64,000 nt of DNA from an uncultured Dehalococcoidia bacterium. GTDB taxonomy: Bacteria > Chloroflexota > Dehalococcoidia > Lucifugimonadales > G958296245. Below are positions 48,894 through 53,773 of this stretch, piece after piece. The notes under the pieces were generated by a model, which had not been told where the DNA came from, ran no database searches, and saw only the letters and a list, made by a program, of their open reading frames with translations. The stretch is taken from assembly GCA_958296245.1 (NCBI GenBank), contig OY282458.1:310001-374000 (forward strand), written 5' to 3'. Position numbers and translations under genes: made by a program. The first letter of the stretch is position 1. Each line of letters begins with the position of its first letter.

Positions 48894-51648
48894 ATGAATA
48901 AGCAAGAAGACTTCCAGAACCGGGCATTGGCCCATCTCCTTACCGAGCAGGGAGTCCCGGCGGACTTCGAGCAGCGGGCCGGGCACAGGCGTATGGACGT
49001 CGTCGCGGACGTGGAGGGGCTGCGCGTCGTCCTGGAGGCGGAGACCGGGTTCCACCGCAAGGCGCAGGCAATCAAGGACGCCGACGCCCGCCTGCGTCAG
49101 AGACTTGCCACCGTGGTGTTCGCCGTCTGCTACCCCGACGGCGTCACCGAGAGCAACTTGGCCGAGGCCACACTGACTTGGACGGTCCGCGTAAAGGCAG
49201 GGGAGCCGTCCGGCGAATGGTCCACAGGCGGGGTGACACAGCTCGCGCAGGCGGTCCAGCAGGCGCCGCGCTCGCTGAGCGGCGCGGACGTGGCGGCACG
49301 GATACTCTCGGACGGTCTGGACGAGGTAGTGGCAGGGCTGAAAACGCCCGTCCGCCGGGCGCTGGCGCGAGCCCTTGACCTCCCCGCCACCAAGCCCAAA
49401 CGTGGAGAACGGAGCGACAGCTACTTCGTAGCCGCCAAGCGCGGGATGCTGGTGGTGGCTACCGCGATGCTGTTCCATCACCGCGTGCAGAGCTACCTGC
49501 CGGACGAGCCTCCCGACGGTTACGACGGGGACTGGCCGCCAGCCAGCGCAACGACGTGCGCCGAGCAGGAGGCCGTGATCAATGCCTACCGCGAGGCGTG
49601 GCGCGGCATTCTAGCGGTGGATTACCGCCCGGTCTTCGAGACCGGGCGGGCGGCGTTGGCGGCGATCTCGGCAGACCCGGACACCGCCCAAGCCGTGCGT
49701 CGTCTGTCCGAGGTGGTGGCCAGGGTCTCGGAGCGGGTGACCGGCCTGCGCCACGACCTGCTGGGGCGCATCTTCCACCGGGTGCTGGATACCGCCCGCT
49801 ACGACGGCTCCTTCTACACCTCCACCGCCGCCGCGGTGCTGCTGGCGTCGCTGGCCCTACGCGAGCAGGACGCCAACTGGTCCGACCCCAACGCCGTCGC
49901 CGCCCTCCGTATCTGCGACCCCGCCTGCGGCACAGGGACGCTGCTCATGGCAGCCGCCGAACGTATCCGCGACCTGCGCAACGCCGCCGGACCCGGCGAC
50001 CCCGAGGATGAAGAGGCCCTCGGCTTGGCGCTGGTCGAAGACGTTCTCTGGGGATACGACGTCAACTTGACCGCGACCCACATGGCGGCCAGCACCCTGG
50101 GCATGCTCTCTCCCACCACCAGGTTCAGCCGCATGAACATCCACCGGGCGCTTCTGGGCGTGTTCGACGGCGTGCCCTACCTCGGGTCTCTGGACTTCCT
50201 CTCAGGTCAGGCACGGCTCGCCGCCTGGCCGTCCGCCGCTCAGCAGGTGGACACCGAGCGGGGAATGGCGGAGCCGCCCCCGCCGATGGACCTCGTGATC
50301 ATGAATCCGCCATTCACCCGCGACAGCCTGCGCCATGACCAGTTCACCCGCGAAGACGAGCTTGCTGTCAAGAACCGTGAGAAAGCAGTGCTGGGAGGCC
50401 TTTCCAGGCAGGATAATGTTCTTCTGAATTCCTCTGGCGGCGATTTGGTGATTGCCGAGTCCGAGCAAGCTGCTGCCCGCCTCCATTCCTCTGGTGGGGC
50501 TTTTACCGTTCTGACCGAGAAATTGCTCAAGCCCCACGCCGGCGCCTTGGCGCTCGTTCTCCCTTCAGTAGTCCCCACCGCTCCGGGCAATCTGGCTTTG
50601 CGCAAGTATCTGGCCCAGCGGTTCCACATAGACACCATCGTCAGCTCCCACGACCCGTCCCGCATCTTCTTTTCGGAGAACACCAGCATCGGCGAGGTGC
50701 TGTTGGTCTGCCGGCGGTGGAGCGGGAGCGGGCCGAAGCCTCAAACGCGGGTGGTCAATCTGGCGCGGAACCCGGCGACGCCGCTGGAAGCGCTGGACGC
50801 CGCAGCAAGGATCGAGCGGTCAGACGGGGGGGGGGGGGGGGGACTTCACCGTTCAGCGGGTGGACTCCAGCCGTATCGAGCGCGGCGACTGGTTCGCCGT
50901 CAACTTCCTGTCGCCGTTCCTAGTGGAAGCCTACCGGACGCTCAGCGAGACAGATCCGGGGGCAGTCCCCACAGTCCCGTTGAGCGATCTGGCCGACGTC
51001 GGCCCGGAGGGGCGGGGGATACGAGGCACCTACACGCGCTCGGACACGCCGACCCGGGAGGGTCGGCGGGCGCTCTGGTATCACAAGACGGGCATCACGC
51101 AGTCGATGCGGGCGCAGACCGACGTCTACGTCGAACCCAAGCCTTCCAAGCGGCGCCTCGCAGACAGATACTGGGGGCAGCGCAGCGAGCTGTTGCTGCC
51201 GCACCGTCTCTGGCTTCCCCTGGCGCGAGTCGCAGCGGTAATGCTGCCGGAGCGGGCCGTCGGCTCGATTTGGACGCCCTGCCGCCCCCACGACCCGGAC
51301 ATAGCCAAGGCCGTGTGCCTGTACCTGAACTCCACCCCCGGCCTGCTGTCCCTGCTGGGCACGCGCGGCAACCGGAAACCGTCGTACCCGTCCTTCTCGC
51401 TGGACACGCTGCGGTCCCTGCCGCTGCCCAACTTCGGCGCGCTGGGCAGCGTCGAACGTGACCTGCTAAGCAGTTGGTTCGACTGGCTGCAAGACGAAGT
51501 GCTGCTACCCTTCCCGCAGATGCACGATGACCCGGTGCGCCTCCGGATCGACGAGGCGGTAGCCAAGGCGTTGGGCCTCGACGACGAATGGGTTGCCACG
51601 ATACGGCGGGAGCTGGCGCGGGAACCTTCTGTTACGGACGGCGGCTGA
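48894..51648 (+). pseudogene. Type IIG-like restriction-modification enzyme, frameshifted at a run of 17 G (probably phase-variable, OFF)
   Basis: The gene reads in one frame from the ATG at 48894 to the G run at 50826-50842, then continues in the +1 frame to 51648. The first frame stays open to 51461 but gives non-homologous sequence. The N-terminal part has a PD-(D/E)xK-like pattern (MDVVADVEG, LEAETGF). The adenine methyltransferase motif I is DPACGTGT (342-349) and motif IV is NPPF (471-474). After the run come DFTVQRVDSSRIERGDWFAV and a likely target-recognition part. With 16 or 19 G the two frames join to about 917 residues. It may be a real switch or an assembly error; no separate specificity or restriction gene is adjacent. 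Confidence 0.75.
50826..50842 (+). repeat. Poly-G tract of 17 bases within the RM gene
   Basis: A single uninterrupted run of G between GAC and ACTTCACC. For the downstream part to be in frame the run must have 3n+1 bases, so 17 is out of frame by one. Confidence 0.95.
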
Positions 51649-51734: not shown

Positions 51735-52391
51735 ATGAGACTCCAGATCGAAGGAAACCCCGACTACGGCCATCTTCGCGTCGGATTGACACCCGGGGAG
51801 AGCTTTCTCGCTGAGGGCGGCTCGATGACGTGGATGGACACGAGGGTGGACGTGCGGGCCCGTCTGCTCGGCGGATTCCTCCGCGCCCTGGTCCGCAAGG
51901 TGACCGGGGGCGAGTCGCTGTTCGTCGGCGAGTATGCCGCCGCCCGTGGCGGCGAGGCCGTCTTCTCGCCCTCCCGGCCCGGCATGGTCGTCCAGCGCAC
52001 CATGAACGGAGATTCCATTACGTTGACCGCAGGCTCGTTCTTTGCCTGCACGCCGGGTATCGACTTGCGCACTAAGTTCGGGGGTCTGCGGTCGCTCTTT
52101 TCGGGCGAGGGCCTCTTCTTCATGGAGTGCAGCGGCGCCGGCGAGTTGTTCTTCAACTCGTTCGGCGGCATCGTCGAGAAGGAGATTGACGGCTCATTCA
52201 TCGTCGATACCAGCCACGTGGTCGCGTGGGAGCCTGGCCTCAGCTACTCCATCCGAGGGATGGGCGGCATCAAGAGCACGTTGCTCTCCGGGGAGGGGCT
52301 CGTGATGGAGTTCTCCGGTAGGGGCAAGCTATATCTCCAGACTCGGACGGCAACCGGGGTCGCCTCCTGGCTGACCCCGTTCACGGCGTAG
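51735..52391 (+). CDS. AIM24/TIGR00266 family protein, first of three
   Basis: The ATG at 51735 follows GGAGG closely and gives 218 residues starting MRLQIEGNPDYGHLRVGL; the frame further upstream overlaps the RM gene. The protein has the AIM24 pattern LTPGESFLAEGGSMTWMD, then GGxxR and LFSGEGLFFMECSG, and LVMEFSGRGKLYLQTR near the end. The family forms a beta-helix-like fold; its biochemical role is unknown. It has no membrane segment. The second copy starts 9 bp after its stop. Confidence 0.85.
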   Translation: MRLQIEGNPDYGHLRVGLTPGESFLAEGGSMTWMDTRVDVRARLLGGFLRALVRKVTGGESLFVGEYAAARGGEAVFSPSRPGMVVQRTMNGDSITLTAGSFFACTPGIDLRTKFGGLRSLFSGEGLFFMECSGAGELFFNSFGGIVEKEIDGSFIVDTSHVVAWEPGLSYSIRGMGGIKSTLLSGEGLVMEFSGRGKLYLQTRTATGVASWLTPFTA

Positions 52392-52400
52392 GCGGTTGGG

Positions 52401-53090
52401 ATGCAGGTAGAAGCAGCACGGAGGGGAGCGTTTGGATGGGCCTTAGTGAGGCTCGATCCAGGGGAGCGGTTCATCTCCGAGGCGGGTTCGATGTTCAGGG
52501 TCTCCGGCAACGTTGACATCGACGTCACGACACGGAGCCGGGGCACGGGCGGCCTGCTATCCGGGATCAAGCGTATGATCGCAGGCGAGAACTTCTTCTT
52601 TTCGACCTTCACCGTCACCGACGGGGCCCCGGCTGAGGTGGGACTTGCGCCCAAACTCCAAGGGGAGGTGGCGGTCATCGAGTGCGACGGGCGGCGCAAG
52701 TGGGTCTGCGCGGGCGGGAGCTACTTGGGATCGTCCCCTGAGTTGAACATAGACACGCAGTTCCAAGGGATCCGCGGGGTACTCTCCGGCGAATCACTCT
52801 CCTTCCTGTCGGTGGAGGGCGCCGGCCCTCTGATCGTCAACGCCTTTGGGAAGATGACGGAGATAGACGTTTCCGGCGAACTCACCGTCGACACCGGTCA
52901 CGTGGTCGCGTTCGAGGACTCGCTGACGTACTCGATAGGCAAGGCCGGGGGTAGCTGGGTCCAGTCGTTCTTGACGTCTGAGGGGCTGACTCTCAAGTTC
53001 TCGGGTCGCGGGCGCCTGTACGTGCAGAGCCACAACCCGGACGAGTTCGGCAAGTCCATCGGCCCGCTACTGCCGCCGCGGAGGACCTGA
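52401..53090 (+). CDS. AIM24/TIGR00266 family protein, second of three
   Basis: A 229-residue paralogue with LDPGERFISEAGSMFRV, GGLLSGIKRMIAGENFFFSTF and LKFSGRGRLYVQSHNP. It is the most divergent of the three. Its stop overlaps the start of the third copy (TGATG), implying translational coupling. Function unknown. Confidence 0.85.
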   Translation: MQVEAARRGAFGWALVRLDPGERFISEAGSMFRVSGNVDIDVTTRSRGTGGLLSGIKRMIAGENFFFSTFTVTDGAPAEVGLAPKLQGEVAVIECDGRRKWVCAGGSYLGSSPELNIDTQFQGIRGVLSGESLSFLSVEGAGPLIVNAFGKMTEIDVSGELTVDTGHVVAFEDSLTYSIGKAGGSWVQSFLTSEGLTLKFSGRGRLYVQSHNPDEFGKSIGPLLPPRRT

Positions 53091-53773
53091 TGGAATACGC
53101 GATCGAGGCGCAGCCCAGCTACAGCCTCCTCGAAGTGACCTTGGATCCCGGCGAGCAGATCGTCGCCGAGGCCGGCGCTATGACGTGGATGGACCCCAAC
53201 GTGAATGTCGAAACCTCGGTGCGCGGCGGCCTGCTCGCAGGCGTCAAGCGGTCTCTCCTGAGCGGGGAGAGCTTCTTTCAGAACACCTACACGGCCCATG
53301 AAAAGCCCGCCACGATCGGGTTGGGACCCGGCCAGCCGGGGGACATCCGCGCGTACGAGATGCAAGGCGAGGAACTCCTCCTCGAGCGCGGGGCATATCT
53401 GGCGTCCACAACCGGCGTCGAGACCAACTCCGATTTCCAAGGACTCAGGGGTCTCTTCAACGAGGGTCTCTTCGTCCTGAAGCTATCGGGCAACGGGCTG
53501 GTCTTCTTCAACGCCTACGGGGACATCGAGGAGATCGCCGTCGACGGCTCTTACGTGATCGACAACGGCCATGCGGTTGCCTGGGAGCCCTCGCTGGAGT
53601 ACCGGTTGACCCGCGCCGGGCGCGTACGGTCCTTCCTCTTCTCCGACCAGATCATCATGGAGTTCTCCGGGCGCGGCAAACTCTGGGTCCAGTCCCGCAA
53701 CCCTCGCTCACTGGCCGACTGGGTCTTCCCATTCCGCCCAACCCAGTCCGATTCCGATTCCGACTCCGGCTGA
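53090..53773 (+). CDS. AIM24/TIGR00266 family protein, third of three
   Basis: A 227-residue paralogue with LDPGEQIVAEAGAMTWMDPN, GGLLAGVKRSLLSGESFFQNTY, NGLVFFNAYGDIEEI and IMEFSGRGKLWVQSRNP. It is the closest to the standard bacterial TIGR00266 protein. The C-terminus ends in a short Ser/Asp repeat (SDSDSDSG). Function unknown. The three genes form one operon and may build a hetero-oligomer (inference). Confidence 0.88.
   Translation: MEYAIEAQPSYSLLEVTLDPGEQIVAEAGAMTWMDPNVNVETSVRGGLLAGVKRSLLSGESFFQNTYTAHEKPATIGLGPGQPGDIRAYEMQGEELLLERGAYLASTTGVETNSDFQGLRGLFNEGLFVLKLSGNGLVFFNAYGDIEEIAVDGSYVIDNGHAVAWEPSLEYRLTRAGRVRSFLFSDQIIMEFSGRGKLWVQSRNPRSLADWVFPFRPTQSDSDSDSG

What the first reader, a model, noticed from the sequence alone, without database searches (positions are those of the whole stretch)
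50826..50842. Run of 17 G inside a type IIG-like restriction-modification gene: a probable phase-variation switch, here OFF
Seen: an uninterrupted G17 lies between the methyltransferase core (motif IV at residue 471) and the likely target-recognition part. The downstream frame, open to 51648, is shifted by one. Loss of one G, or gain of two, joins both into one protein of about 917 residues, with DFTVQRVDSSRIERGDWF continuing directly after the Gly run. Known: poly-G tracts in Campylobacter and Helicobacter type IIG genes switch DNA methylation and phage defence by slipped-strand mispairing. Inferred: the same mechanism operates in a free-living Chloroflexota, where to my knowledge it is rarely discussed. 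A phase-variable methylase could control an epigenetic regulon or phage resistance.
Basis: partly seen in the sequence, partly recalled or inferred. Interest (0 to 1): 0.8.

Follow-up and report, generated by a model that had tools for sequence, protein, structure and literature searches.

The report
Slippage switch in a restriction-modification gene
A run of 17 Gs splits a gene for a DNA-methylating, probably also DNA-cutting, defence enzyme into two reading frames, and related uncultured Chloroflexota carry similar slippery runs in many methylase and sugar-transferase genes, which suggests that these bacteria randomly switch such genes on and off as known animal-colonising pathogens do.

Summary
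In detail: G17 at 50826-50842 lies in a 917-codon gene, and the downstream frame is off by one. Chance does not explain it: 0.0005-0.006 such runs are expected in the 2.69 Mb genome. The encoded protein is type IIG-like: an N-terminal PD-(D/E)XK-type region, a gamma-class N6-adenine methyltransferase and a C-terminal target-recognition part. An ortholog's model (pLDDT 86, pTM 0.88) matches BpuSI, CamA, M.BseCI, DrdV, MmeI and PglX.

The G17 is not present in the closest orthologs. Three other orthologs have independent slippage repeats elsewhere: (ACAG)16 (OFF), C10 (OFF) and C10 (ON), all in predicted loops. The sequence beyond the G17 is still under purifying selection.

The pattern is genome-wide. 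In 13 related genomes, runs of 12 or more G/C fall in at least nine further DNA methylase genes and a group of membrane glycosyltransferase-like genes. Ten of 132 runs lie within 300 bp of a PF01555 methylase domain (expected 0.8; 0 of 5000 shifts).

Best reading: SSR phase variation of R-M and surface genes in uncultured Dehalococcoidia. The mechanism is known; I found no published case in Chloroflexota. Switching itself, and the exact tract length (hence "OFF"), need raw reads.

The parts
48894..50825 (+). Upstream part of the R-M gene (644 codons): N-terminal PD-(D/E)XK-type region, helical linker and methyltransferase core
48894..49268 (+). N-terminal nuclease-like region (residues 1-125): D35...E48-A-E50; distant paralogs have the canonical PD...ECK
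   Evidence: 38-sequence alignment; secondary structure
49917..49937 (+). Methyltransferase motif I, DPACGTG (residues 342-348)
50304..50315 (+). Methyltransferase motif IV, NPPF (residues 471-474)
50826..50842 (+). G17 tract, the proposed slippage switch; falls in a predicted loop between the methyltransferase core and the target-recognition part
50842..51648 (+). Downstream part (268 codons plus stop) in the shifted frame: target-recognition and C-terminal part, 56-78% identical to orthologs L043, L044, L046 and L049, under purifying selection
50843..51461 (+). Out-of-frame tail translated in the assembled state (855-aa product that lacks the real C-terminal part)

Best explanation
The gene is a mobile, stand-alone type IIG-like restriction-modification gene whose expression is phase-variable through slipped-strand mispairing at the G17 tract. 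Shown: the tract, the frame relation, the intact and constrained downstream frame, the domain order, independent SSRs in three orthologs, and a non-random set of such tracts in DNA methylase genes of related genomes. Inferred: during replication the tract gains or loses Gs. With 16 or 19 Gs the nuclease-like region, methyltransferase and target-recognition part are made as one 917-918-residue enzyme with a short polyglycine loop (ON). With 17 or 18 Gs the protein lacks its target-recognition part and is expected to neither methylate nor cut specifically (OFF). Because all activities sit on one chain, modification and restriction switch together. The benefit would be mixed populations in phage resistance, DNA uptake or methylation-controlled expression.
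For: G17 far beyond chance. Downstream frame open for 268 codons and constrained: pN/pS 0.24-0.31 against the three closest orthologs versus 0.22-0.24 upstream and 0.21-0.23 in intact controls. Orthologs: (ACAG)16, the only such array in its genome, with the downstream frame shifted; C10 at codon ~106, frame shifted; C10 in frame in an intact ORF; no G/C run over 6 in the other orthologs checked. All four SSRs fall in loops of the model. In 13 genomes, 10 of 132 tracts lie within 300 bp of PF01555 hits, expected 0.80, 0 of 5000 shifts. Tracts interrupt N6/N4 and C5 methylases, Mod-like genes and a MTase-nuclease fusion. Related Mod-like genes L191 and L212 carry G12 and C13 at the same place. 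Glycosyltransferase-like copies L208/L218 (93% identical) have C17 in frame and C21 out of frame; L249/L257 have C16 out and C12 in.
Against: No reads, so no length variation was seen at this locus. The tract is absent from the five closest orthologs. Most long G/C tracts in these genomes are not clearly inside genes (104 of 130), so the lineage also makes such tracts without obvious function. Three orthologs have frameshifts with no SSR (L045, L050, L051), so some copies may simply be decaying or wrongly assembled.
Confidence: 0.8

Rival explanations
1. The tract is real but its length was misread: the gene has 16 (or 19) Gs in the sequenced population and is simply ON. The tract could still be slippery, so this rival concerns the OFF state rather than the switch.
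For: Homopolymers of 17 are at the limit of every sequencing method (own knowledge). The downstream frame is intact and constrained.
Against: Orthologs with other repeat types, including a tetranucleotide, are also out of frame. Across 26 tracts scored as coding, 6 are in frame and 20 out, near the one third in frame expected for random lengths.
Confidence: 0.3
2. The gene is a decaying pseudogene; the G-run expanded by mutation bias after function was lost.
For: Long G/C runs are common outside genes in this lineage. Three orthologs have SSR-free frameshifts. The C-part pN/pS is slightly higher than upstream.
Against: Only one frame disruption in 2755 bases; all motifs intact; purifying selection beyond the tract; strong enrichment of tracts at methylase genes; an in-frame C10 in an intact ortholog.
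Confidence: 0.12
3. Full-length protein is made from the 17-G gene by transcriptional slippage or ribosomal frameshifting at the run, so DNA length does not matter much.
For: Long homopolymers can make RNA polymerase slip; the GeneTack survey separates such genes from phase-variable ones (PMC3711429).
Against: Programmed frameshift sites are normally conserved in position; this one is absent in close orthologs, and SSRs in others are of different type and place.
Confidence: 0.08
4. The locus makes two separate polypeptides, a nuclease-methylase and a specificity subunit started at GTG 50860.
For: A GTG lies at 50860 (262-aa ORF).
Against: The intact orthologs are single chains. No ribosome-binding site is evident before 50860 by eye.
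Confidence: 0.03

Closest known systems
Cj0031 (Campylobacter jejuni NCTC11168), phase-variable type IIG R-M enzyme (PMC4889913)
   Same: Single-chain restriction-modification gene split by a poly-G tract about 70% along the gene (G9 at nt 2573 of 3732; here G17 at nt 1933 of 2755), with conserved domains on both sides of the tract.
   Different: Switching, methylation motif, phage restriction and expression changes are shown there, none here. Longer tract, shorter protein, unrelated phylum.
Type IIG/IIL enzymes BpuSI, DrdV, MmeI
   Same: Domain order and fold over most of the chain: Foldseek E 4.9e-18 to BpuSI; DrdV aligned over 646 residues, Z 21.8, rmsd 6.6.
   Different: 11-14% identity. 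In the window's clade the third nuclease residue is E where distant paralogs have K.
Type III mod phasevarions (Haemophilus, Neisseria, Moraxella)
   Same: SSR in a methylase gene; an ortholog here has a tetranucleotide array. Two related genomes have tracts in Mod-like genes.
   Different: The window gene is not a type III Mod; no partner Res gene was seen next to it.
CamA, M.BseCI and PglX (BrxX)
   Same: Fold of the methyltransferase and target-recognition parts (Z 19.6-25.8).
   Different: CamA and M.BseCI matches cover only the methyltransferase and recognition parts (model residues ~285-886). PglX works within a multi-gene BREX system; the neighbours here look like a valyl-tRNA synthetase and three AIM24-like ORFs (by eye).

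Membership tests
SSR phase-variable (contingency) gene | Repeat tract inside the gene, longer than chance | tested here: met
   G17; 0.0005-0.006 expected per genome
SSR phase-variable (contingency) gene | Unit changes join or break one otherwise intact reading frame | tested here: met
SSR phase-variable (contingency) gene | Sequence beyond the tract remains under coding constraint | tested here: met
   pN/pS 0.24-0.31 against the three closest orthologs
SSR phase-variable (contingency) gene | Tract length varies between clones and expression follows (the defining feature) | not testable with these tools
   No reads or strains of this species; length differences were seen only in other genes (L208/L218, L249/L257). 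So membership is inferred, not proven
SSR phase-variable (contingency) gene | Same tract kept at the same site in close relatives (supportive, not defining) | tested here: not met
   No G-run at this site in L043, L044, L045, L046, L049. Three other orthologs have SSRs elsewhere in the gene
Type IIG restriction-modification enzyme | Gamma-class N6-adenine methyltransferase with motifs I and IV | tested here: met
   N6_Mtase above cut-off; DPACGTG and NPPF core residues in nearly all of 38 homologs
Type IIG restriction-modification enzyme | C-terminal target-recognition part on the same chain | tested here: met
   Model confident to residue 890; BpuSI, DrdV, CamA and M.BseCI matches extend through it
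Type IIG restriction-modification enzyme | PD-(D/E)XK nuclease on the same chain | tested here: inconclusive
   D35/E48 kept in 34-35 of 38, third residue E (18) or K (17). DrdV aligned from residue 1, but this region was barely tested in the fold list. Catalysis not testable
Type IIG restriction-modification enzyme | No separate partner genes needed | tested here: inconclusive
   The window's neighbours are not found beside the orthologs; partner-free neighbourhood in the window was read by eye only

The most novel reading that the evidence does not exclude
Large-genome lineages of this uncultured Dehalococcoidia order run a broad poly-G/C phasome (DNA methylases of several classes plus surface glycosyltransferases) comparable to that of Campylobacter, so that tract-based phase variation is a general strategy of host-associated or biofilm Chloroflexota and not a speciality of animal pathogens.
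Probability: 0.6. Interest if true: 0.75.

Novelty: new member of a known kind. Interest (0 to 1): 0.62.

Why it matters
Tract-based phase variation is studied almost only in pathogens and commensals of animals. If it operates in uncultured Chloroflexota, random on/off switching of restriction and surface sugars arose repeatedly, probably under phage pressure. It also makes the question testable on existing long-read metagenomes: the same reads give tract length and DNA methylation molecule by molecule. It warns that automatic annotation will call such genes pseudogenes.

Tried and rejected
1. Conservation of the G-run as proof: rejected, it is absent in the five nearest orthologs. 2. Viral contigs: no relative. 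3. Own family and genus: only this genome is held, so no strain comparison was possible. 5. First structure job with 7 sequences: poor (pLDDT 52); replaced by 38 sequences. 6. PDB sequence search: only weak hits. 7. The other three long tracts of this genome: G13 lies 6 nt before the ATG of a cobalamin adenosyltransferase-like ORF, G18 at the 3' end of a glycosyltransferase-like ORF, G14 between genes; none splits a gene. 8. Frameshifts of L045, L050 and L051: no SSR at the break, not counted as support. 9. Short-read genomes with clustered poly-G (G001, G002, G005) may hold sequencing artefacts, so the tract survey used genomes in few contigs. 10. Literature search for Chloroflexota or sponge-symbiont phase variation: nothing relevant. 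11. Confirming the sponge origin of relatives through a paper: failed.

Full report
OBSERVATION. The window holds G17 at 50826-50842. The ORF from ATG 48894 enters it after 644 codons and continues in a wrong frame to 51461; the frame that matches relatives runs from 50842 to 51648. A gene with one G fewer encodes 917 residues. The genome is one 2.685 Mb contig with 22 G/C runs of 9 or more and four of 12 or more. Markov expectations for runs of 17 or more are 0.0005-0.006 per genome.

PROTEIN. Pfam gives N6_Mtase above cut-off; PADLOC gives weak type I, II, IIG and PglX methylase hits. An AlphaFold model of the 83% identical ortholog L049, with 38 homologs, has mean pLDDT 85.8 and pTM 0.88. 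Its best fold matches are the type IIG enzyme BpuSI (Foldseek E 4.9e-18), CamA (Z 25.8, rmsd 3.3, 491 residues), M.BseCI, DrdV (646 residues aligned, 1-877), PglX and MmeI. Residues 1-125 have PD-(D/E)XK-type order: D35, then E48-x-E50; in distant paralogs the same columns read PD...ECK. So the protein works like a type IIG enzyme. That it cuts DNA is inferred.

ORTHOLOGS. Relatives were found in species-representative genomes. None of the five closest has the G-run; the place is a variable linker. However L047, 56% identical, has (ACAG)16 about 38 codons further on, and the downstream frame (PLSEAAEVGPAGQGIRG...) is shifted. It is the only such array in that genome. L062 has C10 at codon ~106 with the frame shifted beyond it. 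L113 has C10 that reads PPP inside an intact 928-codon open frame. The other orthologs checked, some of them partial, have no homopolymer above 6. In the model all four SSR sites are loops: near residues 100-109, 364-369, 624-632 and 668-677 of L049. The window's neighbouring genes are not found beside the orthologs, as expected of mobile R-M genes.

SELECTION. Downstream of the tract pN/pS is 0.30, 0.31 and 0.24 against L049, L044 and L043, and 0.43 against the more distant L046; the upstream values are 0.23, 0.24, 0.22 and 0.34, and intact-intact controls of the C-part give 0.21 and 0.23. The shifted part is thus not long dead; a slight relaxation cannot be excluded.

GENOME-WIDE PATTERN. 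Eighteen of 20 genomes chosen for few contigs have G/C runs of 12 or more. I fetched the surroundings of those in 13 of these genomes and scored codon use on both sides: 26 of 130 tracts are coding on both sides, 6 in frame and 20 out; about six of the 26 are weak calls. Clear cases are methylases L146 (N6_N4), L162 (C5), L172 (N6_N4 fused to a MutH-like nuclease, C31), L189 (a paralog of the window gene), L191 and L227 (Mod-like). Inspection of tracts near PF01555 hits added L212, L235 and L152; L152 has C12 right after a possible start codon, in frame. L191 and L212 are similar Mod-like genes with G12 and C13 at the same place, i.e. independent tracts. The other main group is membrane glycosyltransferase-like proteins; family support is modest (PMT_2 for L175; weak NCBIfam glycosyltransferase hits for L208 and L217). 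Copies L208 and L218 are 93% identical over 2.1 kb, nearly identical next to the tract, and differ as C17 versus C21; L249 and L257 differ as C16 versus C12; L238 and L253, in two genera, have C15 and C16 at the same place. Ten of 132 tracts lie within 300 bp of a PF01555 match; 0.80 are expected and none of 5000 circular shifts reach ten. The list of PF01555 matches was cut at 150 of 198; the same list was used for observed and expected counts.

DISTRIBUTION. Among 124 genomes of the order at least 90% complete, 57 have G runs of 13 or more; genomes of 2.0 Mb or less nearly all lack them (my reading of the table). Some short-read genomes show clustered poly-G that may be artefacts.

MECHANISM AND RIVALS. 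Slippage at the tract would switch the whole enzyme. Length misreading, decay, RNA-level slippage and split subunits are the rivals given above. Only reads can settle the present state, which is why 'OFF' is held more loosely than 'slippery'.

KNOWN AND NEW. Cj0031 is the direct parallel. Passages searched in the 2025 review of phase variation are about pathogens and commensals. I found no paper on phase variation in Chloroflexota in the held library; absence there is not proof.

Noticed in passing
window 50400-50456: A 19-residue in-frame insertion (LSRQDNVLLNSSGGDLVIA) after motif IV, absent from the orthologs aligned.
   Followed up: no
L039:8261-8273 (G000:C1:55260): G13 lies 6 nt upstream of the ATG of a cobalamin adenosyltransferase-like ORF, where a ribosome-binding site would be; length changes could tune its expression.
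   Followed up: no
L040:8607-8624 (G000:C1:2049606): G18 at the 3' end of a minus-strand ORF that looks like a glycosyltransferase; slippage would change only the last few residues.
   Followed up: partly
L035:1502 (G000:C1:1299456): G10 inside an O-antigen-ligase-like membrane protein of the window's own genome, in frame: a possible second switch, now ON.
   Followed up: partly
L172:1482-1512 (G006): C31 between an N6_N4 methylase and a MutH-like nuclease part: a possible phase-variable fused type II R-M gene.
   Followed up: partly
L240:1502 (G158): G14 splits a gene for a large ATPase-like protein (weak sacsin-like ATP-binding match); function and defence role unknown.
   Followed up: no
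G158 and G000, whole genomes: Long G runs are strongly biased to one strand of the contig (11 to 1 for 10 or more in G158, 4 to 0 for 12 or more in G000).
   Followed up: no
window 51735-53773: Three tandem ORFs that look like AIM24/TIGR00266-type proteins directly downstream (by eye).
   Followed up: no
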